Origin: Planoprotostelium fungivorum | Taxonomy: Eukaryota; Evosea; Variosea; Cavosteliida; Cavosteliaceae | Assembly (NCBI GenBank): GCA_003024175.1 | Contig: MDYQ01000002.1 | Coordinates: forward strand, 302,691-366,690 | Direction: 5' to 3' | DNA length: 64,000 nt | Part shown: positions 6,515-53,712 of the stretch, piece after piece | Layout of the letters: each line of letters opens with the position of its first letter | Numbering within the stretch: the first letter of the stretch is position 1 | Translations under genes and position numbers: made by a program | The notes under the pieces: generated by a model | The model's database searches: none | What the model saw: only the letters and a program-made list of their open reading frames with translations | Told to the model about the DNA's origin: nothing

Positions 6515-7435
6515 TTATAGACTTTCGGGTGAGAAACCCATCCATGTGCTGCCCCATCCACTCTTCCATCCCTCTAATTGTCCGAAAAATGATAGTCCCT
6601 TCTCATTGTCACACTCTGTGTCGACCCACATCCAATCGGCCGTCTCTGGTCTTTCCTCCAACTTCTGCATCATCACCCGCATGATGCAAGTGGCCAGACG
6701 TGACCTTCTGAACTCCTCCACCACGTTCAAAGTGCCGATACTTCCATCCACGTGGATGAAAGCCCATGCGGCCAGCTTCCCATCCGTAGATCGAATGGCG
6801 CCAGACCATCCCGCCTCGATCCTGGATGAAAGATACTCTTTACTCCGCACAATGTGTGATGCCGCCACGATGGCGTCGAGATCATCATCCACCAGTGGAG
6901 AGACGATGAAACCTTCGGGGACTTGCAACGGAGGTAGAGGGGATGGTGGTCGGATGAACTTGAAGCAGGGATTTGTCCATGTGGGTTGCAGGTGAGGCAC
7001 CCACTTGTGATGCACAGAGCCGACGACGAGACCTCTCGGGAGGCTGACGTCATTATTGTCTCCTCTTAAGGCACCAAGGGCGGAGGACAATCCGGCCCTG
7101 ACGAATTGTTGTACAAATGATACGTCTTCAGGAGAGGGTGGAATCTGCTCGCCGTCGATGGATGTGAAGAAGCGGCTCTGTTGATCGGTGATGCGACATC
7201 GTCTAGTGAGATCGGGTAGGGCCAAGATGTAGACACCGAATCGGTGTGGCCAGATAGATGAATCGATTGGCAGGCATTCTAAGGTAGTCCAGATGAGGAG
7301 AGCGTGATGCGATTGTTGGGCGATGTGACCCAATGCGGGGAGAGAATAAGGTAAAAAACTGTGGAGAAGGGAGGCCAATTGAAGATAAGACCTCTTGTCC
7401 ACTGGATATAATCGTGTGTCTGCTTGATCGATCAT
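6515..7435 (-). CDS. GNAT acetyltransferase, glycine N-acyltransferase/FR47-like
   Basis: A single-exon gene of 306 codons starting at the ATG at 7435 (MIDQADTRLY); longer in-frame starts upstream give a low-quality hydrophobic lead and were not used. The C-terminal half carries the GNAT core typical of GLYAT/FR47 proteins: AAWAFIHVDGSIGTLNVVEE is the beta4-beta5 region, followed by FRRSRLATCIMRVMM, which corresponds to the acyl-CoA pyrophosphate-binding loop and helix. Members transfer acyl or acetyl groups to small amines or amino acids; the substrate here cannot be predicted. The acyl-CoA loop is poorer in glycine than the classical Q/R-x-x-G-x-G/A. It lies tail to tail with EF-Tu, whose stop is about 150 bp away. 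Confidence 0.7.
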   Translation of the reverse strand: MIDQADTRLYPVDKRSYLQLASLLHSFLPYSLPALGHIAQQSHHALLIWTTLECLPIDSSIWPHRFGVYILALPDLTRRCRITDQQSRFFTSIDGEQIPPSPEDVSFVQQFVRAGLSSALGALRGDNNDVSLPRGLVVGSVHHKWVPHLQPTWTNPCFKFIRPPSPLPPLQVPEGFIVSPLVDDDLDAIVAASHIVRSKEYLSSRIEAGWSGAIRSTDGKLAAWAFIHVDGSIGTLNVVEEFRRSRLATCIMRVMMQKLEERPETADWMWVDTECDNEKGLSFFGQLEGWKSGWGSTWMGFSPESL

Positions 7436-7567
7436 CGCGATTGCGAAAAAACAGAAAATCAAATCAATAAAGGAGGGCACACAAAAGATCCAAGACGAGC
7501 TAGAGCTCTCGAAACTTCTGAATGGAATAATAGCACAATCTGACGACATGAAGCATAATGGCACAAT

Positions 7568-18473: not shown

Positions 18474-19368
18474 ATTGTCTTATTAAGAGTGGATGCTGGC
18501 TCTGGCAATGAATCCAAAAAGGTTTTCAATCCTTCTGTATTCGCAAAACCCTAAAACCTCCTTCTTCTTTGTTGTAGATCCCCCTGTCATCTTCAAGAAT
18601 TGTGCTTTTATTGCCATTTTTCAACATCAGCAGCCATCGAGGTGCTCTGTCGCCGATAGAAATTACCGTCCCATCAAATAGATGAGTATCATGCTTCCTC
18701 TCGCAAGTGGCGCTGGTAGTGATGATGGATCGTATGTTTGCACACTAACCCATTAAAATCGCACGGAGATCCTGCATTCGTGTCATAGAGTGCATCAAAA
18801 AGATCGAGTGATAGATCAAACCGATCTTTCGTTCCCACCGCTGATCAGAGGGATCAGAGCTGGCTAGTGTCAATCCTGATCCATCCATCTGGAAGACTTT
18901 CAAGCTAAACACATCTGGACACCCTTTTTCTTCTTTTGGTCCATCCTGGTGTCTATATGGCCGGCGAGTCCAAATGCATCAAGTGAGTCCGTTCATCACA
19001 CCGAGACGGACAGGGCCGATGGAACAGACGATCAGGATTTCTCTGTGACGATCGCATCAGACACGTGTTGAGTCGGTTCGGACGAGGAGAACGACGATTC
19101 TGTGCACGAAGTGGACGAGGTCTTTCGAAAGACTGATGGAGGATGATGCAATTGCTAGAGGGAGACGCATGTTGGGTGTTTGGTATTTCTATCATGCCTC
19201 AGTGCCTGGACGGTTCCATTGAATTACGAGGCACACTGCATGATAAGAGATAGCTGTGTTGGATAAAATGTTCGGTTGTCCACCGGAGACCACATACAAT
19301 ATTTACTGCAGTGCTTGAGAAGACTTGACCACAGAGAGACTTGACAACACGATAGACTTTATGAAAAA
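18474..19368. other. 0.9-kb stretch without a recognised gene
   Basis: It lies upstream of eS27 and downstream of the mucin-like gene. A possible short exon on the plus strand (ATG at 18958, MAGESKCIK, then gtgagt) has no supported continuation. Open frames on either strand are short and lack domains. The eS27 promoter should lie next to 18474. Confidence 0.4.
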
Positions 19369-22300
19369 TTACAAGAGGCAAAGGAGAGTGATAGCGGCCA
19401 CCGATGTGACGGATAGTTCAACCATCGACCCCCCGCTGCTGATGATATTGATCACAGATGTGTCTGAAGATGGTGTCGTGTCACTACCACTCTCAGGTGA
19501 TGACGTAGAACTGGTGGAGGGATCGACAGATATGGAGCCGATGGATGATATACTGGGGGTAGATACGGACGCGGTGGAAGATGTAGATTCAGAAATGGTA
19601 GAGGATGTGCTGGACGAAGAGCTGGTGTAGAGTCTGTCGGACCTCGAGTTGGTTCCCAAACTTGTAGAGGGTTCGCTTGATGTAGAGGATGAAATGGTAG
19701 CGGAGGTAGAGGTTGTGATCGGTGTAGAACTCGTAGAGGATGCGGTAGATGTAGAACTTACAGAGGTGGTGGATGTAGAGCTGGTAGAAGGTGTGGTGGA
19801 GGTAGAGCTCACAGAGGATGTGGTGGAGGTAGAGCTTACAGAGGATGTGGTAGATGTAGAGCTCACGGCGGATGTGGAGGATGTAGAGCTGGTAGAAGAC
19901 GTGGTAGAGTACGTCGAATGAGTAGATGATGTGGTGGACGTAGAGCTGGTGGACGATGTGGACGATGTGGAGAGGGTAGAGGATGTAGTACTTGTCGATG
20001 TGGTGTCTGAGGTCACCGTGGAACTTGCAGACGGCTCGGTGGATGTCGAGCTGGTAGAGGGTATCGATGACGAGGTGGAGGTCGTAGTAGTACTCTCTCC
20101 GGTGGATGATGTATATGAAGAGGTCGTGGAGCTCGTAGAGAGCTCACCAGATGTTGAGCTGGTGGAAGACTCGCTCGTGGCGGTATCTACCGAGGATGTA
20201 GACGATGTTGAGCTGGTGGTGGGTTCCATGGATGTAGAAGTGGTAGAGAGCACGCTGAAAGTAGAGCTGGTAGAGGTCTCGCTGTACGTTGTTGAGCTGG
20301 TGGAAGATTCAACCAATGTAGATGTTGTAGAAGTTGTGCTATCCATGGTTGAATCGGTAGAAATGATAGATGTGGAACTGAGGGAGGATGTGGTGGGATT
20401 GATCGCGTCACCTACATAATGGTCATCACAATGTCGAATGGTACATCACGCACCAGTACAGACGTTGGTTGTCATCTGACCTTGTCCTCTCACGATGACA
20501 AAAAACTGTGGGGACGTAGAACTGTTTGTCTTAAACTGGTTGTATAGAGGGGTGGAGGCCTTCATGAGTTGCTTTGAAGAGATGACGTTCAAAGGGACAA
20601 TCGATCCAGTGACATTCACGGACACAAGAGCGGCACCTACTGGTATAGGCGGGTACTGTAAGATCAACAGATCGTTGACATCGTAATTTTGCCCATACGA
20701 TCCCGGTCCGTTGATAGGCACTGTCATTCTATCAGCCGAATTGAATCGATGTATGTCGACTGACTCAGAGTGAAGCTGACTGTCATGGGTGATCGGGTAG
20801 GTAGTTGGACGTACAAGACATCGGAAGAGCAAGTGATCGTGAAGAGACTTGTGGTGCCATCTAGGTAATAGAAGGTAGACGATGAAGCTGTAGACATTGT
20901 AGTGGCCTTTGCCGGATCACTGGGGATACCATCACATCTCAGACAGTAACCTTGGGGTGGCTGAATGACGAATGCACTATTCCATGCAGGAACGTTGAAG
21001 ATAGAGTCATTCGTGACCGTGTAACACACTGAACAACCATGAGATAGGATGATCAGGAAGGTTTTCACTCACAGTCCACCAAAGGTGCATTTATAATCCC
21101 AAAATAGTTCACGGTTGTTGCAGTAGAACTGTTCGTGTCAGAAACATATCACATTGCGGGACGATTTCACCAGCTTTTCAATCCTTTTTGATAGAGGGGA
21201 CCCCCAGAATCTGCAATGACTCCAGAAGGAACATTGATTTGATATAGGTCTTTAGGAAGGTTGGGAAAGCTGGCTGAGATGGATCAATGCTGATGACTTG
21301 TGCTACAAGGAAGATCAGATGATGACTCCAACGAATGTCTCTTCATCGATCGATCATCTCTCACCGGGTTGATTCATCCTTATGGAGAGATTGATAGTAT
21401 TGCTGCTACCACAGTTGTACACGTAATCGAAGGCTCCCAACTGAGAGTCAACGGGTCGTCCATTGATAATTCCGCCTGGAGGATAGTAGGTGATGTTGAC
21501 CAATTTTACAAGAGCCCAATAGACAGAGGAGTTGCCAAAAGCCTGACAGGGAGCAGAATAAGTGCCCGTAGTAGATACAGTCAAGGTGGGTGGTGTCTGG
21601 GTGGAAATGAGCGTCCAACTGTTCTGCAAAACAGTACCAAAGCCTGAGCCCTTGCATGTGTGGGCATTATATAGCTGACATCTTGTGTTATTTATCCGTT
21701 GTAAGAGTTCGCTCCGATTCCTCACCACATAATGCTGCGATGTGTCCGAGTCCACCAGAAGAACGGAAGCTTGTGAAGTGCAGAGGTATGGTGTAGTGTC
21801 ATACACAACTCCCTGGTAGGCAAAGATGTAGGTGATGTTCTTTGGTGGAACTGGGATCAACTGCACTGAGAAGGTCTGAGGAAAGGAAGTGGCGTACAGT
21901 GGAAAAGCTGACCCAATGTGAATCATTTTATGGAGGTTCCATATCTCACCGTAGCCATCTATACTTGCAGTCGCATTCTCATTTACAGTCAATGAAGTTG
22001 AAAAGTCCACGGTGCTCGAATAGGTAGTGCCAGAATTCAGTTTCAATGCATAGGGTACATCCGAGGAGAAGACGTAGCGAGTAGAGTTTGGTGAGGTATA
22101 GTTCTGTCCGAGTGTGACCTGGACCACATCTGCTCTCGTCAGTAAATGAAGGAGATGACAGAGATGAGGAGAGGTATGATAGAAAGGCTCACCGTTCCAA
22201 AGTACGTTAAGCATGATTGGAGAGTTAAAGAAGACGGTCTGATTGAGAGGGGTCCATAGAATAATCTGATAGGAAGTACAAGGCTGGAGCTTGGGGCCTC

Positions 22301-22535
22301 GAGCGCCACCGTCACATATCTCGTTAAAGAATGCGCCAGGTGTATAGGAGTATGTGAAGGGATAGGGTGAGCTGGTTGTAAAGACGGGAGAGAAATAGCC
22401 GGTGGCATTAATTTGACTTCATAGATCTGAGAGAAGCTGAGTCGGGCGACGGTGAGAGAGGATGTGAGGTAAGTGACTCACGGTGGCTTGAGAGAGAGTG
22501 ACACAGAATAGGAAGAGAAAGAAGGTGCCTCCCAT
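19369..22535 (-). CDS. Mucin-like secreted surface protein, probably GPI-anchored
   Basis: The start at 22535 gives a signal peptide (MGGTFFLFLFCVTLSQA). A large ectodomain follows with many Asn-X-Ser/Thr sites and scattered Cys, spread over several exons (for example NATGYFSPVFTTSSPYPF, CSSDVLYVQLPTRSP and PINGPGSYGQNYDVND). The last exon (to 19369) encodes about 280 residues of almost pure Ser/Thr repeats of the type SSTSSTSTTSS, then ends in a hydrophobic tail LSVTSVAAITLLCLL directly before the stop. A Ser/Thr stalk with a terminal hydrophobic tail and no cytosolic end is the classic pattern of a GPI-anchored, heavily O-glycosylated coat or adhesion protein. The ectodomain family is not recognised. 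Exon borders in 21069-21350 are uncertain. Confidence 0.75.
19500..20345. repeat. Coding Ser/Thr repeat tract
   Basis: Degenerate repeats of about 24 to 30 nt (plus-strand core gtagagctggtagaggatgt) encode the Ser/Thr stalk of the mucin-like protein on the minus strand. They also leave long open frames rich in Glu and Val on the plus strand, which are shadows. Confidence 0.85.
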
Positions 22536-23056: not shown

Positions 23057-26000
23057 TTAATCGACAGAGTCCACCAAGCTGATCTGCGGCCCGAAAGTCT
23101 TCCAAGCCGAAGCGAAGAGTTGAGCGAACTTGGTCCAATCTTCTGGCTCTTTCGGTAGGGGCACCGAAGGAGGTAGCGGTGAAGAGTCATCCTGCAACAG
23201 CAGCTGTCTGGCTTCGATCATCTCCTCTTGTTCTGTTGACGTCAGATGTCTCTCTTCATTGCGTCCTTGACTCACTCCCTAGATATTCTTCCATCTCTCC
23301 CACGCTGACCAAGAGGGGTTCTGAGATCTCTGCGAAATCTGGGGAGGAACGAGGTACCACGATGGTGGTGAGGAGGACTAGATGTCGCACGCTCTCTGCG
23401 ATGGTGTCGGTGTCTACGTTACCCAACATCGTCAAGATGTTCGTCTTCTGTTCTCATCATCAGCTCATCATCTTCTCATGATGGCATCCTGATCGTGGAC
23501 ATGATGATGATGGACATGATGATGATGATGGTGATCACCTTGACGATCTTGACTGCCGTGTAGATGATACCCTCAACGTATTTACCATCCATCTCCTCGA
23601 TCTCTCTCATGGCCTTGTACGCTCCGAGGACATTCTTACACGCATCGATGACTGCCTCCTTTGTAAAGCTCTCCATGGCCTGATACCAGTACAGATACAT
23701 CCACCTCCATCGGTTCATCAGACCTTCGTACTTCTTGATGTCCGTGTCGTTCAGTACCACGTCCACCGCTGATTTCGTGACGTCATCACCCAGTACTTGT
23801 TGCATCCTCTCGTGAGATGAGAAGCCCATGTCTTCTACAATGCTTCGATTCATGATCTGAAGTCATCAGGATGGTATGTCTTTATAGATGTTGTATGTCT
23901 TCAGAGGATATCGTATTGTCACATGAATTGAAAAGATGTTCACCTCTTTGTAGATGGTGGATGCGACGTAACCTCCGTGCTTGACTGGGCCAGCGAAGGC
24001 AGCGAGGAAGGTGGATAAGTCTTTCATCCTCAGATCTGGCTCGTTGAGTGATCCACTGGCCTCCACCGCCTTCTCTTCTTCAACCAACTACATTTCATCT
24101 CAGTAGTCATCCTTTCATCTGTGGATGACACATATATTTGTACATATAAACTTGTACAAGAACATCCTCCATGTCTGAAGGTATGAATCACTCACCCTGG
24201 ATGTGAAACGATATTGGATCTGTTGGATCTTATCTCCCGAGTTCATCGCCTTCTTCTCCCACTCCTCCAGTTCCTTACTGAATTTCTTATTGCTCTCCTC
24301 CACTTCCTCCCTCAAACTCTTCTGCATGCCCTCCACCGTCTCTCTTCTGAACGTCTCCGAGAAGTCCGGGTCACCCTGTCTGTCTCTCACGTAGATCAGG
24401 AAATAGGCACTCGTTGCATTTCTCGATTGTCCCAGGCCATCCTTCATGACGTTCTCTTCTTCTTCTTCGTTCACTCTGACGTCGTTGTACTTTATCCACT
24501 TGTTGTTCTCTAAATCTCGAATGTGGGTCCAGTAGTGACCGCTGCCCGCCACACCCTGGTGGATGCAGGCGGCGAAGAGTTGATACTTTTCTCTCTGGTT
24601 GAGTTGGGAGTACAAGCCTTCGATCTCGTCCTCTAAGCCTTTGATCTTATCACGGATCTCTTGAATGTTGTTCCTCTCTCGTTGTAGATAGCCGTCCATC
24701 AGCTGGATGATAGAGGGATCGCTTTCGTTGTCCTTCAGGTAGTCTAGCGTAGATTCGATGGCTGAATCGATGGCGTGATCTCTACCCTGTCATTCATCAG
24801 ATGATCGTGGAGATGTCACGATGTCACACCTTGTAGCGTGTGTAGTTGAGGAGGTTCTGCTTCTGCTGTGCGAGATGTGCTTTCAACTCTACGCTCTCTC
24901 TTCTCTTCTGTGTGGTGATCGCTTGATTCTCCACGTAAAATCGGTCCATGAATAATTCTTTGGGAAAATGAATGGGTGTCTCTCTCTTCAGATACGTCTT
25001 GCTCTCTTTGTCATAATACACTCTCTGTTCGATCATCATTCTCGGTTATTTTGCATTCAAAACTCACGCTCTGCAGGAGAAAAACGACGTCGGGTAATTT
25101 TTTGAACCAGAGAGAACGATTGGCAACGCTCTGATAACCTTTGTCCGTCACGTAGTCCGATTCATCAGTCAGAGCCTCATCGATTCGCTCGTAGACATTG
25201 CTCGATTCTTCTCCGATGGGTAATATCTTGATGACGTCAATCATCGATGAAATTCTGAAATCGTCGATGTGTAGATCGGAATCATCGATGCGTTCGTGAC
25301 TCACCAATGTCGATATCTGTGCATCTTTCGTGGATTCTGTCGTCGTGCTGTCTTGCTCTTTCGCGCTGGAATACTGTACACCCGTTCCGTGAAACAATCT
25401 GAAGAAAAGAATGAGGGGAGGAGAATTCCATCATGCTGGGGACGTCAATCTACAACGCTATCGATGATGTCACTCACGCGAACAACTTTTGGAGTTCGTG
25501 CATGACTGCATCGAGATGAGAAGACGTGCTGGTGATGATGAAACTCACACTGGACGGATTGTTGTGATAAGAGAGGTGGTTCTTTGACTTCCAAATCCAT
25601 CTTGTCTGTATCTTCCTTCTTCGATGGTTCATCTTCCACTGGGTTGATGTCGGATGGCTCGACTTTTGTTGGGTAAGACAAAATGGCTCTCTTCAACTTC
25701 GGAATGTGAAAATAAGCTTGAAGCAGAGAATTGACGTAACAAGTCTGTCCGATGTTCTTGATGCCAACGGGTCTGCAGGAACGTTAATGTTGGGATGAAA
25801 TCATCAGACACTCACACATTATCTTCCCTCTTTCGAAACTGTGGATTCTCGTAATGATTGATGGTGGACATGCCGTCTGCGTTTGCCATGAGAGAATTCT
25901 CTACGGCGATGGCCATGTTGGTGTCTTCTGGTTTCGACAAGTCCACCATCTCTACTGGCTTCTCTCGAGTCTGTTGTTTCGAGAGTTCTATCGCCTTCTG

Positions 26001-27446: not shown

Positions 27447-27775
27447 TGCCCCGATGTGACCCGATCGTTGGCACTCTGCTTCAGAAATGGTTTTCGAAAT
27501 ATCCTTCCGAAGATTGACAGGAACTCTTTGTGGTCTCTTTCTCCTTCTCTCCTTCTTTGTCGAATCCAGTAAGAAGAGTAGGATACACGAGGCTCTCTTA
27601 TTTTATCTTCTGTGGATCACAGCAGGACAAGAAGCTGTCGAGGTGGGAAACAGAGAACAAGCCGAGAAACAACGCGCCAGACTCAAAGGGCAATTCGGAA
27701 CTATCAGAAATCCGAAACGCACCCGAAGGCTTGCGACAACAGTTGGATCTCTGCTACAAAGTCACAGAGGACACG

Positions 27776-30700
27776 ATGTACCAGAGTTTAGAGGACAACG
27801 AGAGGCGTCCCCTCCTGATCCCTTCGCACGACCATCGGGTTTCCAAGCGTCCTCCTTCCTATGTCGCTGAGCCACCCGAGGTCCCTCAGATAGGATGCAT
27901 CAGTCATCATCTGGCAGCTTTCGCTGTGGTTTACTTTAGACATTTCGCTGAGCATGATCCTGTCGAATTATCGGCTACCATTCAGGCCAGCACTGCGACG
28001 GTGAGCATTCTACTCCAGAGATTTGTGATGTTGATGCTTTTGCAGATGAGATTACCCGCTACCACCGTATCATTCCGAATCGATAGAGAAATGACACTCA
28101 GTGAAGTCAGGGAAGCCACCACACGCGCCGTACCCTTGGCCGTGGTTGGTGTGGCTGACGCATTACAGACCGACATCAGGTGGGTCCAATGTGATCCGAT
28201 ATGTAAATGAAAACAAACAGGTGTTGTTGCATCGTTTTCCCACCTTGTGAGGGAAATGGAGGGGACTGGGTTCTTCACATGGATTTCCGACACGCCACAG
28301 AAGATGAAGGTCCCAGTCTTCGATTCAAGTGTCAAGGAGGTGAGTCGAAACTCACAGTCATCGCCTTTGCACGATCCGATCGAGTGATCCATCTTCAGGT
28401 CACCTTGCCACGAGGAAGTTTGTGCCTCATCACGTCAAGAATGTCTGCGATCAGATCATCACACAGCACTCCCTCAAAGTTGGACAGACTTTCTTCTTGA
28501 ATCACGATGAGGTCAGTCTGCTGAAGAAATTTATGGACAGTCCCAAGTATTTAGAGCCAGAGGTGATGCACATCTTAACACCGAAAAGAACTAAGAGAGA
28601 CAGTACCCTGAGGGTCCCAAGTTGCTCCACCACTTTTTCGAAGAGAATGCCACACACCTACCCGGTAACAGCTGCCTCTACTGGAAGGGACAGAACCACA
28701 GCTACCAGAACATCAACTCGAAAGCAGAACAGATGGCGGGACACCTCCAGAAGATGGGTGAGAGACTCATCCACAGAGGATTTCTTGAATTAAACGATAT
28801 TCACGATCGTTTTATATTTTTACATATATTATACAATGACGATACCATTTATGAATTCCGCTCAGGAGTGGTCGCGGGTGGTTACGTCGGACTGTTCATG
28901 GCTAAATCAGTGGAATTATACATCGCCATGCTGGCTATATTGAAAACGGGAGCAGCTTACGTTCCCCTCGACTTGTCCTTCCCTCCCGATCGAGTCAAAT
29001 TCATCCTCGGTGACTGCGGTGCCCAACTCCTCTTGATCAACACCGAACCCTCCGAAGACCTACAACAGTGGGACGGACAGGTACTTCCACCTCATGACGT
29101 CATCTGACGTCACTCTAGCTCGTCGACGTTCCCGCCCTTTTGACCCAATGTACGCCTAACGATCACTTGTTCGTCGGTCCCAACATCAATTCGAGGTCAC
29201 CGGCTTACGTCATCTACACGAGTGGTACCACTGGACTTCCCAAGGGAGTGGTCATCACCCACGGCAACGTTAGACATCTCGTGAGGTCGGAGAAGATCTT
29301 GTTCGAGACGAAGAGTTCGGATCGTGTGGCGCAAGGATTTTCTGTCGCTTTCGATGCATCCCTCGAGGAACTGTGGATGGCTTGGGCTGCAGGAGGTATT
29401 TCATCACATCATGTTTGATATCACATCATGCCTGACATCACATCACATCACACTGCACATCATGTGTTGCATCACATCATGTCTGACATCACATCACGGT
29501 TCAAATCCATAACAAAATGACAGGCACGCTGGTACCTGTGCCAGAAGACACCATGAAGGCACCAGATGCCCTTCCCAGTGAGTCTCATCATCCATTCCAT
29601 CACACGGAGAGAATCGATTCCTCATCACATCAGGCTATCTCATCGAGAACGGTGTCAACGTCCTCTCAACCGTCCCCACTCTCCTCTCGCTCATCGAACA
29701 CGTCCCCACCTTACGTCTTCTCATCTTGGGAGGTGAGCTTCATGTGATGATCATCACTGAAGAGAATCAGGAGAGGTATGTCCTCCCGAACTCCTGACGA
29801 AATGGTACAGCCCATCCTGCCGCGTTGTCAACTCTTACGGCCCCACTGAAACGACCGTCGTTTCCACGGCTGCAGGTGGATTCGTTGAAATGTGGATGAA
29901 ATGTCGTCTCACTCGGATAGATTTCAACCCTAACGTCAAGCTGACCATCGGACACCCGTTACCGGGATACAAGATCTTGGTTCTAGATCAATCGGGTCAG
30001 ATCGTACCCCTGGGTGCCCCAGGTAAAGACTACACACACGAACGTCCATCCTTCTTACATCAACAATGTAACGAATATGTGCAGGTGAGCTGTGCATTGG
30101 AGGTCCTGCCGTCGCAGCCGGTTACCTCAACCGTCCCGAATTAACGGCGAGCAAATTCAACGACGTGTCACCCTTGGCAACCGGATTCTCCGGCAGATTG
30201 TACCGCACGGGAGATCTCGTCCGATTGACCGAATACGGTACCGTCGATTTCCTGGGCCGTATCGATACGCAGGTGAAGTCGATTCTTTCTGAAACATGTT
30301 GCTGAGAAGGAGAAAAGGTGAAGATCAGAGGATTCAGAGTGGAATTGGCCGAGATCGAGTCGTTGCTGCTGCAGAGTGGAGGCATTCGAAACTGCGCCGT
30401 AGCTCTAAAGCAGAAAGACGAGATCAAGAAGCTAGTGGCTTACGTGGTGCTCGATACTGGTACCACACTCAACACCGACAGCGTCAAGAGCTATTTGAGA
30501 CAGAGATTGGCACCTTACATGATTCCCAACAACTTTGTCGTCATGTCTTCCCTCCCCATCTTGACCAGTGGAAAGGTGATTCATCCATCTACAACGAGTC
30601 GAATGTGAACGACAACAGGTGGACCGTAAAGCACTTCCAGATCCTTCACACGATGACAACATCACTCGACCACTGGTCATGCCCGTGGGACACTTGGAGA

Positions 30701-33700
30701 GCATCGTCTACAATTCATTCAAGAAATATCTCGGAACTTCCGATCTGTGTACCAGCGATGACTTTTTCAACGCGGGAGGAAATTCTCTCTTGGCCTCGCT
30801 CGTCGTCTCTCACCTCAGGCAGAACCCAGAATTCATCGGTGAGTTGTAGATGCCACGTTCTATCTTTAGAGCGATCACGTGACGTGGTACAGGAGTGTCG
30901 GTGAAGGACGTCTACAAGATGAGAACGACGAGAGCTCTCACGCAGTACATCTCGGAGAATTCGATGGGATCTCCTTACATGACTTCACCGGGTGACATCA
31001 ACGGAGAGAACGGCAACCAACCCTCCAATGAGATCCCACACGTGCGTCTCTTCATCATTCTCCATTGATTCTCCATCATATCCACTGATTCTCCATGACA
31101 TCCACTGATTCTCCATCAGGTCAACGTCTTTGTCCGTTTCATCACGGGATTGATCCAGATCTTGTTTCTCACCGTCTTTGGTATCTTGGGAATGGGTTAC
31201 CTCCACCTGGCTCTCTACTGGCGTCTCGCTCTGGGAGATTGGTACTACGGTGTCATCATCACTGCTGCCGTTGTATTCATGATCATCTACATTCCCCTCT
31301 CCATATTCTTCTCTGTTCTCTTCAAATGGATTCTCATCGGAAGATTCAAACCGGGTAAACACAGAGTGTGGGGATTCTATTACCTCCGCTTCTGGCTCGT
31401 GGGAAAGGTACGTCTCATTTTCATCTCCATTTTATGACTACACACCTCGTGACTCGTTGTAGATGATCGGTGCTGCCCCCGTGGGCTTGATGTCAGCGAC
31501 ACCCTTCCTCCCCGTGTATTACTGGTTGATGGGTGCTAAGATTGGAAAGAATACGTACATCGGTACCACTCGTATCTCCTGTTACGATCTCATCACCATC
31601 GGAGACAACGCCAGTTTGGCCAGAGAGTCTGCTCTGTTGGGTTACAGGGTGAATCTCTCCTTCTATACATATTCATCTGATCGTGGTAGGTTGAGAACGG
31701 ATGGCTCATCATCGCTCCCGTCACCGTGGGAGCCAATGCGTGAGTGCAAAGTGATGTCGAGTGTCTCAATGTCGTACAGTTACGTCGGATTACGTAGCAT
31801 CTTGGAAGGAGATTCCGAATTAGGTGCCGGAAGTGAGTTGGGAGATTTATCCGTGGTCGCTGCGGGACAAAAGATTCCCGCCCTTCAAGCTTGGACTGGC
31901 TCTCCCAGTCAATTTGTTCGTAACGTGAGTGAACTCTTTCATCCTCGTGACGTTGAACTCTTTCCACGTCGAACTGACGAGGTTGCAGTTATCGCAAGAG
32001 GAGCACGTGTTCGTTCACACTCCAGGATATCTCGTCATGCAATTTGTAGCCTTCTGGACGGTCAGTTTCATCCCTGCCATCGGTTATGGAGCCGTGACAG
32101 CTCTCTTCTTTGTCGCTTACGATTACTTCGACAGTGAGTTTATTCATTCATCTCCACACATCCGTACGTCTTTATTTTTACTGATGGATGGAAGGTTTCT
32201 GGATCACACTGTCACTCATCTGGCCCCTTTCTTGTTTCTACGTTCTCTTCAGTATCTTCGCCTGCGTCTTCGTCAAGAGGTGACGTGTCATGATGTCATC
32301 TCAATCTGACCCCGAGCAGAGTGTTGGCGGGTAAAGTGGGAGGAATGGTGAGACTGTACAGCTTCGCTTACATCCGTCTGTGGATGGCAGACGCCTCCAT
32401 GTCCATGAGTTTGTCTCTTCTCAAATCCATGTACGCCACCATCTACACTCCCTCTTGGATCAGAATGTTGGGTGCCGACATCGGAAAGGGCGCTGAGATC
32501 TCCACCCTCAACCACATCTCGGCCGATCACCTCACCGTGCGTACATCTCCTTCTCCACTACATTTCCCACAGTTTCTCCACGACTGACAGACCACAGATC
32601 CGCTCCGGAGCTTTCTTGGCAGATTCCACGAGTATCGGTGCCCCCCGAGTACAACACGGCTTCGTCACCGTGGAGCCAACGATCATCGGAGAGAAGACTT
32701 TCATCGGTAACTCTGCCGTGATGGCGGGAGGTATCACCCTGGGAAGAAACAATCTCGTCGGTGCCCTCTCTTGCTCACCCTCCGTTACACCTCCCGACAA
32801 CACCTCCTGGGTGGGCTCACCCGCCTTCTTGATTCCCAGTCGAGCCATTTCCACTTCCTTCGGTTCGTCTCTGACGTACGATCCACCCGCCAGATTGGTC
32901 TGGGGACGTGGAGCGATGGAGATCTTCAAGATCACACTCCCCCACACCTTCGCCATCGGTACTGGAATGCCTCTCATCTACGCCATCATGTACCAATTGG
33001 ACGATCTTCACATTCCGTGGTGGAGGTGATAGACATGGATGTTACGTCAAACTCACAGGAGTAGATCTATCCTGCAGACTACGGCGGGCGGTTTGGGTCT
33101 CATCCTCGGATTCACCCTCCTGACTGTTCTGTCCAAGTGGGTCCTCATTGGAAAGTTCAAGAGGATGGAGAAGCCTCTCTACTCTTCCTTCGTGTGGAGG
33201 AACGAGCTGGTCAATTCTCTCTGCGAGAGTTACGTCTATCCGGTCCTAGTGGGTCCACTCCTGGGTACTCCTCTGGCCACACTCTTCTTCCAGATGATGG
33301 GAAGGTGATCGACTCATGAAAAGTGTAAACTCACTGCGGACAGTCACTTTGGTACGATGGTATACATGGACTCTACGGAGATCACAGAGTTCGACTTGGT
33401 CTGGGTGGCTGATCACGCCACCATCAACAACGGTGTCACGCTTCAGACTCACTTGTTTGAGGACAGAATCATGAAGATGTCAGATCTCCGTGTGGGAAGA
33501 GGTGCCACAGTGGGTGAGTGAGATGGAAGCGACCAAGAGTTGACATGTGAAGGAACTTCTTCTGTGGTGCTGTACGATTCGGTGGTGGGAGAGCACGTGA
33601 CGCTGAAGAGTCTGTCACTGTTGATGAAGGGAGAACAACTGCCGGCCAACACGCGATGGGCGGGTATCCCCACGGCCATGATCACGAACAGAACCATCGG

Positions 33701-33713
33701 TTACTCTCATTAA
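27776..33713 (+). CDS. NRPS-like adenylation-carrier-membrane protein of the Pls (poly-epsilon-lysine synthetase) type
   Basis: A multi-exon gene coding for roughly 1500 residues. An N-terminal region of about 215 residues is unrecognised (it includes FVPHHVKNVCDQIITQHSLK). The adenylation domain then shows A3 YVIYTSGTTGLPKGVV, A4 FDASLEELW, A5 NSYGPTETT, A7 YRTGDLVR, A8 QVKIRGFRVELAEIE and A10 LTSGKVDRKALP. A carrier domain follows with DDFFNAGGNSLLASL, the Ser being the phosphopantetheine site. No canonical condensation HHxxxDG or thioesterase motif is seen. The rest (about 750 residues) alternates membrane helices with left-handed-helix hexapeptide stretches (GAKIGKNTYIGTTRI, LGADIGKGAEISTLN, TIIGEKTFIGNSAVMAGG, VVLYDSVVGEHVTLKS). 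This A-T-membrane order is that of epsilon-poly-lysine synthetase and the NRPS terminal domain known as TIGR02353. The product is probably an isopeptide-linked or short amino-acid polymer (inference). Confidence 0.88.
29396..29523 (+). repeat. Repeat-filled intron of the Pls-like gene
   Basis: The intron (gtatttc to gacag) consists of imperfect copies of tgacatcacatcacatca-like units with catcatgt spacers. It splits the adenylation domain just after the A4 motif (WAAGG / TLVPVP). Confidence 0.8.
31042..31119 (+). repeat. 22-bp tandem repeat in Pls-like gene intron
   Basis: About three copies of a unit containing ccactgattctccat fill the intron between the carrier-domain exon and the first membrane-domain exon (EIPH / VNVFVR). 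Confidence 0.8.
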
Positions 33714-33923
33714 GAATAAAATGGTGCATAGTGTCGCGTTTGTCAGACGAGGATGATAGAGAAATTTCGGTGTAAACCGCGAAAACGACACCAACACAGA
33801 TGGGGTCGAACGCATTGGAGATCGAAGAGATGACAGAACTGAATATAGACGACGGTGGGGAATTCTGTATTGTCTTCGTAACGAGAGGTAGTGAATCCTC
33901 CTCGATCTTGGCGTGACCCGGGT

Positions 33924-34359
33924 ATGCAGTATGCAGGGTTGATTCTTCTCTTATATCTCTTGGCATTCGCGGGAGTGAATCCCTTTATGCCTTCGGTGAG
34001 CTGCCGATCTATCCATCTTGATTGATCATATCATATCACAACTGATTCTTTATTCTGATCGACACAGATCGTTGCATCGTTTTTCAGTAGAGCATCTCTG
34101 TATCTGGGATGGATGGTCAGTCTCAACAATGTCACCACTCTACTCACTGGTCCTCTGATCGGTGTCGTCTCTGATCGATACGGAAGAAAGCCTGTCCTCT
34201 TGTTTTCAGCGGTGAATTAGCTCTTCCTCTCCCCTGAATAACCTTGCATAGATTGGATTGGTAGTGAGCATATTGGGTTTATGGCTCGGGCTCCTCTTTG
34301 GCAGTGTGTGGCCTGCATTCATCTTGCACGTGGCTGCAGGAGGCTTTGGAGGCTTCTGA
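33924..34359 (+). pseudogene. Truncated major facilitator superfamily transporter
   Basis: From the ATG at 33924 (MQYAGLILLLYLLAFAGVNP) two introns, gtgagctg to cgacacag and gtgaatta to gcatag, join three exons in frame. The sequence contains the MFS motif A loop between helices 2 and 3, GPLIGVVSDRYGRKPVLL, then a helix IGLVVSILGLWLGLL and AGGFGGF before a stop at 34357. Only the first three or four of twelve helices exist, and no further transporter exons are found before the next gene at 34.67 kb. Splice sites and frame are intact, so the truncation may be recent or may reflect partial duplication. Confidence 0.7.
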
Positions 34360-46900: not shown

Positions 46901-49446
46901 CCACTCAACAGGTTGTTCGACACCTTCCATCCATCAATTCCATCCACAAACTCCAACTCACATCGAGATATTCTAATCCCAATAGATAATCTCTGAAGTT
47001 CGCTCCCGTCACCAGCCATCCGTAGATGAGATTGTTACTGATCTTGAGCGTCTACAACGAGTCAAAATCTTCCTCTCCAAGAATTTTCACCTGAAGTTTC
47101 TTCGTTGCCGACCCAAATGGCATGGTAGAAGATATCCTGTTGTAAGAGATATCGAGATAAGTCAACTGATAATTGCTCTCGTAACATCGAACATCCATGG
47201 AGGTCAGATCATTGTGTGACACATCGAGATAAGCCAGGCTGGATCCAAAACAAGGTACGTAGCCTGTGAACGTCAGACGTCACTAGTCACATGTCACATG
47301 TCACCCGTCAGCTCATTGTTGGACAGGATCAATTTCTGTAGGGGGATCGATCCCAATTGGGCCGTTGGAATTCTTCCGGTCAATTTGTTGTCGTTCAAAT
47401 TGAGTTGCGTCAGGCCTTTCAGTTTCTCCACGGTGGAAGGTATGACACCACTGAACCCATTCGAAGACAGATCGACGACCTACGATAGAACGTGAGATGA
47501 ACAGCGACATCCTTAAGAGGTGGGTCACCTGCAGTGAGGGGAGGCTGAATACGGTGGATAGATCTCCCGTGAAATTGTTGTTCGTGAGAGTCAGAGTGGT
47601 CAAGCTGCTCAAGTTGGCCAGCGAATGAACGTTTCCAGAGAAAGAATTGAACCCCAATTTGAGCGAAGTCAATCTCTGAAGTCTTCCCATACATTGAGGT
47701 AAATTGGAAGACAAGTTATTTGATGTGGCGATGATAGAGGATAAGATGAAGAGGTTGCACATGGAATCAGGAATGGAACCTGTGATGGTGTGAGGAGAGA
47801 GAGGAGATAGAAGGTCACCGGAGAAGGAGTTGTAATCTATCTCTACGATCCTCGTTCGGGGTGGCCAGATTTGAGGTAGAGGTCCAGTGTGGAAGTTACT
47901 TGACACGTAAAACTCCTGATTTCGTTAGTTTCAATTCTTCTTTCATGTCTCAAATGTATGTATATCAATGGATGTGTATAAATCCATTTAAATTCGAATA
48001 AACTATGAGATGAGATATTCACCTGTAGAGAAGAGAGAGAAGAGAGATCAGATGGTAGCTCTCCCGTCAATCGATTGGCTCCCGTTACAAAGACAATCAT
48101 GCTCTTCAGTTGAAACATGGAGGGTGGAATCGTCCCGTTAAATTGACAAGTGCCCAGACTCAATATCAGAAGAGAAGATGCATTCCAATAATAAGGTAGA
48201 GGTCCTCCCAACAGATTGAATGGCAAGACCAACACTTGTAACTGTAACCGAGCGTGAGAAAAAATTGCTTCGAGAGGGTATCGAGGTGTGGACGTTCACC
48301 TTCTGATGGATGGCGATGTTATCAGGCAGAGGACCAGACAGTTGATTCGAAGCCATGTCAAAGACGGTGAGGTTCTGTAGATTTCCAACAAAGTTGGGGA
48401 TGATGCCGTCGATGAGATTACTGCTGCAACGGATGAACTGGATGGACACCAGACGTTCTAGATAGTGGAGGTTGCCGACAATCCTGTTGCCTCCCAGATC
48501 GATGACTTGAAGATATCTGCGACGTTCATGAGTATCACTTGGACGTGATACGACATCGTGATGTAAGATGTTCACATGTTGAAAGAGAGGGCGGTAAGAT
48601 TTCCAGGCGCTGCATTGCGAGAGAAGTTTAAGAAGGCGAGAAAGGAGAGTGAGGATGCATCCGAGAAGAATGCAGTGGCGTAATTGTTCGAAGCGTCCAA
48701 TTTTCTGATTGTAATGTTGGCATGTCTTCAAAGGAACGAGAAGATGAAGATGTGTGTCTCACCTCAGATTCTTCAGTGAGCTCAATGCGTCCATCTGTCC
48801 CGTCAAATGACAGAATGAGATGTTGAGACTGAAGAGGGAAGAGGGAAGCAGAGGAGCTACGGAGTCGAAGGTTGCATTATAGAAGGCATTGTTAGCCACA
48901 TCGAGCGATGACAGGCGAAGAGAAGATATATTACAGATACTCTGAAATCGGTTGTCTGAGATGTCCAACGATCTGTGTCGTTTATCAGCCGACGGCATAT
49001 CATGTAGCTCACTTGAGAGATGTCAGCTGATTGATCTCCGATGGTAGAGACCCTTGCAACTGGTTCAAAGAGAGATCTAGAGCTGACACATTGGCGATGG
49101 CCGCGAACCATGTCGGGTCTATGGAGCCCGTCAAATTGTTTCCTGACAGAGATATCTACAAGTCTTCAGGGGTTATAGAGGCGTGCTCGTCTCTCACCGC
49201 GACGACTCCCGCCGGAGAGCATGTTACACCGAAGAAGTTGCACACATTATTGTCGCTGTCCCATCCAGTATGATTCAACCAATGAGATCCTGCACATCCG
49301 ACGTTAGAACTAGCAGGGTGTGGCTGATGGAGAACTTCACCTCCTGTGGAATTATAGAAGGACTGATAAGCGCTGAGCACAGCAGGATCTGTCTGCACTG
49401 CGCTGAAATAGACGAAGAAGAGGACCAGTAGCCACCGGAAATCCAT
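43948..49446 (-). CDS. LRR receptor protein kinase (TKL/tyrosine-kinase-like)
   Basis: The start at 49446 gives a signal peptide ([19 protein letters not shown]) and an LRR N-terminal cap with [15 protein letters not shown]. More than 20 leucine-rich repeats of the plant-type LxxLxLxxNxLxGxIP form follow over many exons (for example [26 protein letters not shown]). A single membrane segment, [20 protein letters not shown], precedes a cytosolic kinase with an intact glycine loop [12 protein letters not shown], catalytic Lys in VAVKQ, catalytic loop [14 protein letters not shown] and [15 protein letters not shown] is closer to tyrosine kinases than to Ser/Thr kinases, so dual specificity is possible. 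The C-terminal tail of about 50 residues has Tyr sites ([12 protein letters not shown]). Likely a cell-surface receptor; ligand unknown. Confidence 0.9.
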
Positions 49447-51013: not shown

Positions 51014-53712
51014 ATGGTTATGGAGATGACGAACGAATGGATCAACCAACCATTACAAATCACACAAAAATTGTTCGAAAAGTCCCACTCGTCTTCTACG
51101 ATATCGTCTGCAGATGATCCTTGGAACGTGAAGAAATCATTTGAAGAAGCGTTCGGAGACAATTGGACGCAAGTGAGGCGACATCATCGTCTTCTCAGAG
51201 GCCTGAAGATGATGATAGATTCCCCTCTTAAGTCAAGCGAGCTCGGGTAAACTCTCTAATGGCTCTCTAGTTCGAGTCCGTGCGATGATTCAAGACACAT
51301 TCGATCCTGAATTCTTCTTGGAGAGTGTATATGCCTCCAATGATCAAGGACACAAAGTAAAACGAACATGATGAATGCAATCATTGACATGGATAACAGT
51401 GTTTATGCACTTCGAAATATCGAGATGGATTAGACGTACAGGTGAGCCATTTATTCCATCGTCTCAATCAACCATCTACAGGATGATTACGAATTGGACG
51501 AAACAAGCCAGAAATTTGGAGAGAGATATCCCCTGTGCGTACCACTCCATCCCATCAATCATTCACACATTACAGTCTGTGCGTGTCACCTCCAGGTCTC
51601 AACTCGTGGGCGGACGAGAACGTCACACCCCCGACGCCGATCACGACGTCATCCGTCTCATCGTCATCCATCCCATCGTCCGATGTGATGGAGTCCAGAG
51701 GAAACAAGAGGAGAGCACCCGAAGAGCCCTCCGACATGGAAGATTCCATCGATCTCCAACGTCCGAGGGTGATCATCATCTTCATCATCGACACGAGAGG
51801 GCTGATCCTAGAAGGTCCAAGAACATTCCGAGAACATTTTGGCGGGAAATTCTGATCCCAGCGTCTATCCCATACAGAAGGGAAAGGCCAGCCTCAGCCC
51901 TCCCTGCTTGGTTCGCGTATACGATGCGAGTTCAGATTCCTTCAAGTTGAATCACACCTTCGAGTTCGTTGGAATCCTCCACTATTCTGGACCCCAGGAA
52001 GAGGCGTGAGCGAAAGAATGTCGACTATGGAAACGTTAACGTAGACAGTCAAATGGATGTCGACGATTTCGAGACGGTCATACCGGGTCAGAGTGCCATG
52101 CCCAGGTTAGAATGCATACAGTACAGGAGAGTGGATGATCGTAGATTGGTCGAAGGTGAATCTCTTTCACATTTTGCTCGCCTCTGTTATCCTTCTTCAT
52201 CTCTTTTTTCCGTGAAAAGTCTCGGAATATTCTTCCATTTTTCTCGGAATATTCTCTCATTCTACACTCAAATTTCTCCCATTTTTCACGGAAACTTCTC
52301 TGAATCATTCCATTTCTCAAGAATACAGGCTCGAACGCACAGATGGAAGTGGAACAAGTGAGAGAGACCAGACGACTCATCATCGATTGGCTGGCCAGCA
52401 CCTTACACGGAGACAAATTGGCTGCCGAATACGTCCTCCTCAACCTCTTATCGAAGATGTGAGTCGCACTACAACTCGTCACGATATCGCGACAAATCGT
52501 CATGACATCATCCCAGTCACCACCGAGCCGAGGCATTACCTTTGGGCAGTCTCTCACTGAATGTAAAGTACGCACCACAGTCCACATTCACTGCAGCCCC
52601 ACTCTCCCACGTCATTTCACAAGTGAATGACACTAAGCCTTCCCATTCATTTCAACTCACCCGTTCAGATCGTAACACGCGACGTCCTCTTGAATTTAAC
52701 GGTCGAACACTTAAACGAGACGACGTTCGTTCCAAAGAAAGACATCGACACGAATCGATTGCACGCTGGCGTCCTGCAGGTGATCGAAATGTCTCATCTA
52801 CAACGATCAAGTGACACGGTGGAGGTATCAGAGGGCACGATCATGGTCATCGATGAAGGCAAGTTGCGGGCGGGACAGCTGACTGCACACGGAACATCCA
52901 ATGTAACGGCTCTGGGGAATATGATGACGTGGCAGAGGGTGGAATACGACTTTCAGTATCAGAGGATTCCGTTTCCGGTGGATGTTCCGGCCATCACTCT
53001 GTCTCACGGTAATTCTCTCATCAAGGTGAGATCGTGGATGATGACATCACATGGACATCGTCATGGACATCACACTACATCACATCACTCATCATGTGTC
53101 ATCATCACATCATCCATCATCATCCCATCCATCATGATCATCTTCCAATCAACCTCCTTCATCAGCGATATCTTCAATCACCTCCTCAAATGATCACCAG
53201 GCCATGATCAGCGTTTCCGTTCGAGAAGAAGAAACCCCAACTGTCTCCCCCACCCCCGATCAGCTGCACATGATGAGAAGGTGTCATCACATTCTCTTCT
53301 AATTCTCACTCACTGACAGATACATCGCACACTGTCGTTATCTAAACATGGACATCGATGAAGCCACGAGCGCGGTGAGGGGAGAATTCGTGGAGCATCC
53401 GTGGAGAATGTGTGGGAACTGATGGGAACAGGTGATGCAGAACACGTTCGTTCACGCGAGGAAGACGGACAGCGAAGTACGACAAGACACACTTCACCTC
53501 TGGTTAACGCTAGCAAGGTGTCCACACGATCATCATCATCTATATCATCAAGCAGATCACCATCATCAGCAGCATCATCATCATGCTGATCAAGACGATG
53601 GTAGCTGATGAAGAACAGATTACAGTGTAAGAGCTTCGGAGAATCACAGCTGAGTGAAGAGAGGTGGAACTACACCTTAGACGTTGAGAAGAGGAGGGTC
53701 GCTCGCTCTTGA
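51014..53712 (+). CDS. MCMBP: MCM-binding protein (MCMBP/ETG1)
   Basis: Nuclear partner of MCM2-7 that takes part in loading or unloading of the replicative helicase and in sister-chromatid cohesion. Family blocks in order are MTNEWINQPLQITQKLFE, MIQDTFDPEFFLESVY, CLVRVYDASSDSFKLNHTFE with FVGILHYSG, GDKLAAEYVLLNLLS, PLGSLSLNV, LHAGVLQVIE, MVIDEGKLRAGQL, NVTALGNMMTWQRVEYDF and the C-terminal RYIAHCRYLNMDIDEATSAV with WLTLAR. About a dozen introns interrupt it, including two repeat-bearing ones near 52165-52328 and 53027-53203. The start could be 51014, 51020 or 51026, which are all in frame; the last matches the family start best. Essential housekeeping gene in most lineages. Confidence 0.93.

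What the first reader, a model, noticed from the sequence alone, without database searches (positions are those of the whole stretch)
27776..33713. Pls-type amino-acid polymer synthetase in a protist
A single gene joins an NRPS adenylation domain, a carrier domain and a terminal module of membrane helices alternating with hexapeptide-repeat helices, without a canonical condensation or thioesterase motif. This is the order of bacterial epsilon-poly-lysine synthetase. In a eukaryote with spliceosomal introns throughout it would represent an unusual route to an amino-acid homopolymer or acylated amine, possibly a surface or antimicrobial product. The N-terminal 215 residues have no counterpart I recognise and may be a new accessory domain.
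Basis: partly seen in the sequence, partly recalled or inferred. Interest (0 to 1): 0.82.

Follow-up and report, generated by a model that had tools for sequence, protein, structure and literature searches.

The report
Bacterial polylysine-type synthetase inside a protist
A single-celled eukaryote carries a gene, apparently taken over from Hymenobacter-like bacteria and since filled with introns, for an enzyme that most likely strings lysines into a positively charged, probably antimicrobial polymer; the kind of enzyme is known, but its origin and its extra half domain are worth a look.

Summary
Window 27776-33713 (+) reads as one gene of 26 exons encoding 1525 aa. Its C-terminal half matches TIGR02353, the Pls/PosA polymer-synthetase module, over the cut-off (552 vs 423 bits), after an NRPS adenylation and a carrier domain. 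The adenylation pocket reads DAESIGSVVK, one residue from a Kitasatospora Pls-type enzyme, so lysine is the likeliest substrate. The 'unknown' N-terminal ~215 residues look like the C-terminal lobe of an NRPS condensation domain without the catalytic lobe, by profile and by fold of a Hymenobacter relative. In trees the protein and two EukProt transcript proteins form one clade beside or within Hymenobacter: most likely one bacterium-to-eukaryote transfer. Introns and eukaryotic neighbours argue against contamination. Family members in fungi and Amoebozoa are already in print (PMC7179176, PMC10522769). New against what I could search are the Hymenobacter-like origin and the half condensation domain. 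Substrate, product, localisation and host species are untested or unknown.

The parts
27776..33713 (+). whole gene, 26 exons, 25 GT-AG introns, 1525-aa Pls/PosA-family synthetase
27776..27886 (+). N-terminal tail (about 37 aa), poorly alignable with bacterial relatives; contains ERRPLL, which fits an acidic dileucine pattern (weak lead)
27887..28615 (+). half condensation domain (C-terminal lobe only, residues ~38-218, over 5 exons); no HHxxxDG motif
   Evidence: fold from the Hymenobacter relative
28616..30639 (+). NRPS adenylation domain (residues ~219-705); pocket DAESIGSVVK at residues 416, 417, 420, 459, 478, 480, 502, 510, 511, 698
30640..30930 (+). carrier (thiolation) domain, limits approximate; attachment Ser754 in GGNSL at 30784-30786
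   Evidence: (Pfam match of one reading frame, 17.5 bits, under the 20.8 cut-off)
31120..33680 (+). TIGR02353 terminal polymerisation module; by the model of the Hymenobacter relative three repeats of a helix pair plus left-handed beta-helix; conserved QTHLFEDR with His1452 at 33450-33452

Best explanation
This is a working, horizontally acquired Pls/PosA-family synthetase of the lysine type. Inferred mechanism, from the family: a phosphopantetheinyl transferase arms Ser754 of the carrier domain. The adenylation domain activates L-lysine with ATP and loads it on the carrier as a thioester. The membrane-embedded module of three fused beta-helices then repeatedly joins side-chain amine to carboxyl, giving free epsilon-poly-L-lysine without a thioesterase. 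The N-terminal half condensation domain lacks the catalytic lobe, so it probably serves only as a platform packed on the adenylation domain. The gene entered eukaryotes once, from a Hymenobacter-like Bacteroidota donor, and then gained introns. Its polycation is most likely used against bacterial or fungal prey or rivals. Shown by sequence: gene structure, family, pocket residues, half domain, position in the tree, eukaryotic neighbourhood. Inferred: lysine, polymer, mechanism, direction of transfer, use.
For: TIGR02353 at 552 bits vs cut-off 423 and adenylation model TIGR01733 at 399 vs 317 (first model). Pocket DAESIGSVVK against DAESIGTVVK in a Kitasatospora homologue that has an M1 metallopeptidase next door; PMC8117764 reports a peptidase gene in the pls operon (Results read; that it is of the M1 family is recalled). 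Against it, DFECLSAVTK in a Streptomyces homologue beside diaminobutyrate aminotransferase and aspartate kinase. Patel and Gulick report Asp and Glu at pocket positions 1 and 3 conserved and Ala at position 2 for lysine (PMC10522769). 150 of 153 near-invariant columns kept. Three eukaryotic proteins form one clade, 100/100, and join the main Hymenobacter group, 100/100. Of 20 neighbouring reading frames scanned, 4 have a Pfam match over the cut-off, among them a ubiquitin hydrolase 3 kb upstream and an MCM-binding protein 19 kb downstream. One PPTase-type match was found in the genome.
Against: No expression or product data for this organism. Pocket position 7 is Ser, not the Thr of most relatives; it keeps the hydroxyl, and 7 of 120 listed relatives read DAESIGSVI. 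Pocket codes do not fix substrates. Patel and Gulick place homologues from eukaryotes other than fungi, with unknown substrates, in their group 4, near diaminopropionate and diaminobutyrate enzymes; whether those include this clade I could not check. The AU test does not reject the named group of 12 Hymenobacter and Hymenobacter-like rows as a clade without the eukaryotes (p 0.064), so 'nested within' is not firm. Several rows of that group carry no species name, and three listed close relatives are labelled as Janthinobacterium MAGs.
Confidence: 0.75

Rival explanations
1. Same kind of enzyme, but the monomer is another diamino acid (ornithine, beta-lysine, diaminobutyrate), giving a different cationic polymer.
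For: The code differs by one residue from the common lysine-type code. Patel and Gulick show that one pocket change (M218A) shifts preference from ornithine towards lysine (PMC10522769) and put other eukaryotic homologues, substrates unknown, in the group of diaminopropionate and diaminobutyrate enzymes.
Against: Ornithine type has Met and diaminobutyrate/diaminopropionate types Phe at position 2 (PMC10522769); here it is Ala, as in lysine enzymes. The code given there for a beta-lysine enzyme is DGESISVVNK.
Confidence: 0.17
2. The module no longer polymerises: it transfers one lysyl or aminoacyl group to another acceptor (lipid, polyamine, peptide), perhaps with the half condensation lobe taking part.
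For: The terminal module resembles single-transfer acyltransferases of the hexapeptide class. No product is described for the Hymenobacter-type subfamily in the papers I saw.
Against: Near-invariant family positions are kept, 150 of 153. The half lobe lacks HHxxxDG (sequence).
Confidence: 0.1
3. The direction was reverse, or the family is old in eukaryotes: Hymenobacter took it from a protist, or eukaryotes inherited it vertically.
For: The AU test leaves the Hymenobacter-like rows as a clade without eukaryotes possible (p 0.064). Other eukaryotic lineages have family members (PMC10522769).
Against: In the 62-row tree all other rows are bacterial or of unnamed source, with other Bacteroidota groups nearest outside (the root there is only a midpoint). 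Only 2 of the 120 listed best hits are marked EukProt, and 0 of 120 in a search with the C-terminal 393 aa (one row, P0199, has an unclear source mark).
Confidence: 0.06
4. Bacterial contamination or a pseudogene.
For: Most of the closest listed proteins are bacterial.
Against: 25 introns with frame kept, eukaryotic neighbours, eukaryotic 18S and 5.8S in the assembly, an identical second copy, transcript-derived relatives in two EukProt entries.
Confidence: 0.01

Closest known systems
Hymenobacter Pls/PosA-family synthetases (e.g. L009, P0003)
   Same: Same domain order including the half condensation lobe; 54% identity over 1491 aligned columns with L009; pocket differs at one position
   Different: Bacterial, intron-free; L009 has a PPTase gene directly downstream; pocket position 7 is Thr instead of Ser
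epsilon-Poly-L-lysine synthetase Pls (Streptomyces/Kitasatospora; here L092 as stand-in, picked by its pocket and M1 peptidase neighbour)
   Same: A-T-terminal module; pocket DAESIGTVVK vs DAESIGSVVK
   Different: 31% identity over 1310 aligned columns, no half condensation lobe (A3 motif at residue 211), distant in the tree on a long branch whose place is unsure
Fungal Epls of Epichloe festucae (PMC7179176; title, start of abstract, passages and section 2.2 seen)
   Same: A eukaryotic member of the family, reported there as the epsilon-polylysine synthetase gene of the fungus
   Different: 51% identical to S. albulus Pls by that paper, so close to Pls proper; not compared here by sequence
PosA, delta-poly-L-ornithine synthetase (PMC10522769)
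   Same: Same family and architecture by that paper
   Different: Pocket DMEHNGTVSK; ornithine as substrate; sequence not fetched here
NRPS condensation domain (C-terminal lobe), e.g. RzmA starter C domain 7c1h
   Different: The N-terminal lobe with HHxxxDG is missing

Membership tests
Pls/PosA isopeptide homopolymer synthetases | terminal domain over the TIGR02353 cut-off | tested here: met
Pls/PosA isopeptide homopolymer synthetases | NRPS adenylation domain followed by a carrier domain with attachment Ser | tested here: met
   TIGR01733 399.1 vs 317.4 bits; GGNSL with Ser754; Pfam carrier match of the single reading frame is weak, 17.5 vs 20.8 bits
Pls/PosA isopeptide homopolymer synthetases | three tandem units with paired membrane helices and hexapeptide beta-helices | tested here: met
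Pls/PosA isopeptide homopolymer synthetases | pocket with Asp and Glu at positions 1 and 3 | tested here: met
   D416 and E420
epsilon-poly-L-lysine synthetase (Pls) | lysine-type pocket, Ala at position 2 | tested here: met
   DAESIGSVVK vs DAESIGTVVK in L092
epsilon-poly-L-lysine synthetase (Pls) | product is epsilon-linked poly-L-lysine | not testable with these tools
   needs enzyme assay and mass spectrometry
epsilon-poly-L-lysine synthetase (Pls) | belongs to the Streptomyces/Kitasatospora Pls branch | tested here: not met
   groups with Hymenobacter at 99-100% support; the only stand-in for that branch, L092, was alone, on a long branch
NRPS condensation domain | fold of the C-terminal lobe | tested here: met
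NRPS condensation domain | catalytic motif HHxxxDG in the N-terminal lobe | tested here: not met
   no such motif in residues 1-230, read by eye in the sequence; the profile match covers only the C-terminal lobe

The most novel reading that the evidence does not exclude
The protist and the two transcript-derived relatives make epsilon-polylysine at endolysosomal or phagosomal membranes as a digestive or defensive weapon: a bacterial killing polymer re-targeted by a eukaryotic N-terminal tail. The tails of the window protein (ERRPLL) and of P0007 (EKSSLL) fit an acidic dileucine sorting pattern (pattern recalled), found in the first 40 residues of only 4 of 126 other relatives with a long N-terminal part. 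Against: P0012 lacks it, and shuffled tails show it in 4% (window) and 16% (P0007) of 5000 trials.
Probability: 0.15. Interest if true: 0.8.

Novelty: new variant of a known kind. Interest (0 to 1): 0.5.

Why it matters
It adds an apparently Bacteroidota-derived entry of an antimicrobial-polymer enzyme into eukaryotes, which looks separate from the Pls-like fungal one, and shows that the gene was kept and filled with introns. It also explains a domain that hmmscan against Pfam-A did not name in the relatives I tested as half of a condensation domain. That suggests this branch arose from an ordinary condensation-adenylation module that lost its catalytic lobe when the polymerising module took over, a testable account of how some homopolymer synthetases came from NRPSs.

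Tried and rejected
Bacterial contamination and pseudogene were rejected (introns, neighbours, conserved sites). A new accessory domain at the N-terminus was rejected: it looks like a condensation C-terminal lobe. The first 25-exon model was replaced after alignment; searches ran with it. Searching the N-terminal region alone found nothing at E <= 1e-3 among 475 candidates. hmmscan against Pfam-A lists no condensation family for 8 full-length relatives at E up to 10. Foldseek alone gave no match at E <= 0.001 for that domain, and the profile comparison has a probability of only 48%, so the identity rests on score against shuffles plus the second look, which can only re-rank Foldseek's picks.

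Host identity: not resolved. The assembly has eukaryotic 18S and 5.8S, but no tool I used names the species; paper searches on one guess gave nothing usable. Which species P0007 and P0012 come from is not shown. Fungal family members were not compared by sequence; none was named in the lists I received. tRNA and Rfam scans of the window were empty. The AU test did not reject the Hymenobacter-like rows as a clade without the eukaryotes (p 0.064); that group of 12 rows, named after I had seen the tree, includes unnamed rows (P0001, P0004, P0021, P0044, P0047, P0057, P0058).

Rows and selection: one search used 62 rows and one search used 27 rows that I chose from the 86 extracted loci and the 120 listed proteins. 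In one search, 13 of 86 loci gave no strict A3-motif match, two of them because the open frame was short (L017, L070); some others are cut by contig ends. One search left out rows under 1200 aa and kept 201, of which 198 are other than the three eukaryotic ones. In one search only the 7995 candidates sharing most words were scored and 120 of 2727 listed. 'Not in print' for the half lobe and for a Bacteroidota-to-protist transfer rests on searches only; the held library lacks most subscription journals, and the supplementary tables of PMC10522769 were not open to me.

Full report
What is there. The window is part of a 36.9-Mb assembly in 471 contigs (G000, contig C90) with eukaryotic 18S and 5.8S genes. 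On the + strand, 27776-33713 reads as one gene. A first model of 25 exons was corrected after alignment with six relatives: an in-frame 45-nt GT-AG intron lies at 28001-28045, and the exon after 33025 starts at 33065. The corrected gene has 26 exons, 25 GT-AG introns of 38-128 nt, and 1525 codons before the stop. At 20 of 25 junctions the protein aligns without gaps to both EukProt transcript proteins P0007 and P0012.

Substrate. Read by alignment, the ten pocket residues are DAESIGSVVK. A Kitasatospora homologue (L092) reads DAESIGTVVK; the gene next to it is an M1 metallopeptidase, and PMC8117764 describes a peptidase gene in the pls operon (Results read). A Streptomyces homologue (L090) beside diaminobutyrate aminotransferase and aspartate kinase reads DFECLSAVTK. 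Patel and Gulick assign Ala at position 2 to lysine, Met to ornithine, Phe to diaminopropionate and diaminobutyrate (PMC10522769). Of 120 listed relatives, 99 gave a readable nine-residue code: 45 DAESIGTVI, 44 DAESIGTVV, 7 DAESIGSVI, 1 DAESVGTVV and 2 DAESIGSVV, the last two being the EukProt proteins. Against this, the same paper places most fungal members in its ornithine branch and other eukaryotic members, substrates unknown, in its group 4 with diaminopropionate and diaminobutyrate enzymes; I could not see whether this clade is among them. Lysine is the likeliest monomer; this is inference.

Origin. The best 120 of 2727 relatives include two EukProt proteins near the top; the named ones of the closest group are Hymenobacter, apart from three MAG entries labelled Janthinobacterium lividum. 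In a 62-row tree without the N-terminal domain and a careful 27-row tree, the window protein, P0007 and P0012 form one clade (100/100). This joins the main Hymenobacter group (100/100), and a second group with Hymenobacter siberiensis lies outside (97/97). The AU test did not reject the Hymenobacter-like rows as a group without the eukaryotes (p 0.064), so 'next to or within Hymenobacter' is the safe wording. Of 20 neighbouring reading frames scanned, 7 have a Pfam match at E <= 0.01 and 4 pass a cut-off: a ubiquitin hydrolase (24118-24789), an MCM-binding protein (52627-53190), leucine-rich repeats (48141-48758) and an FR47-like acetyltransferase (6518-7567); the first two are eukaryotic families (recalled). 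I read this as one transfer from a Hymenobacter-like bacterium followed by intron gain. The fungal enzyme Epls is 51% identical to S. albulus Pls (PMC7179176, section 2.2 read), while this protein is only 31% identical to the Kitasatospora Pls-type enzyme, so these two look like separate acquisitions. No fungal sequence was in my trees.

Second copy. Contig C115 carries the gene again. Window 27700-34033 is identical there, introns included. Matching pieces around it are 98-99.6% alike, with two at 90% and 94%, and the match ends near window 34.4 kb. Alternative haplotype and recent duplication are both possible.

How it works. Known for the family, from the papers cited: adenylation, loading on the carrier, and polymerisation by the membrane module through side-chain amines without a canonical condensation or thioesterase domain. 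Inferred here: the conserved QTHLFEDR of the third repeat (His1452) is a candidate catalytic histidine by analogy with hexapeptide acyltransferases (recalled); the half lobe is a platform on the adenylation domain, as the C-terminal lobe is in condensation-adenylation pairs (recalled). One PPTase-type match was found in the genome. A PPTase gene follows the synthetase in Hymenobacter L009, the only one of four loci whose scanned neighbours (ten in all) included one, and in the Rhizobium and Sphingomonas records. Use against microbes is the proposal of PMC10522769 (Discussion read).

Novelty. Family, mechanism and even amoebozoan, metazoan and alveolate members are in print (PMC10522769). New against what I could search are the half condensation lobe as the identity of the N-terminal domain, and the Hymenobacter-like origin of a protist clade of these genes. 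I therefore call it a new variant of a known kind, of moderate interest.

Noticed in passing
G000 contig C115, about 44.4-59.4 kb (L095, L096): Second copy of the gene and upstream flank; gene identical incl. introns, flanks diverged, match ends near window 34.36-34.41 kb
   Followed up: partly
window 18670-22362: About 3.7 kb with no counterpart at that place in C115, where only about 100 bases separate the flanking matches; an insertion or deletion between the copies
   Followed up: no
window 34119-34213 (+): By eye, a stretch reading GVVSDRYGRKPVLL, the usual loop of major-facilitator transporters (recalled), directly downstream of the gene; one search translated another frame and no profile was run
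   Followed up: no
N-terminal tails of the window protein and P0007: ERRPLL and EKSSLL fit an acidic dileucine sorting pattern; 4 of 126 other relatives with a long N-terminal part have it in the first 40 residues, P0012 does not
   Followed up: partly
L037, L062, L075 (Holophagaceae): Family members with long N-terminal parts and open frames of 1664-1678 aa, i.e. extra sequence also elsewhere; not examined
   Followed up: no
G000:C175:26289-26486: Weak TIGR02353 match (27 bits) away from the gene, perhaps another hexapeptide protein
   Followed up: no
L009:10587-11264: Phosphopantetheinyl transferase gene directly downstream of the Hymenobacter synthetase
   Followed up: yes
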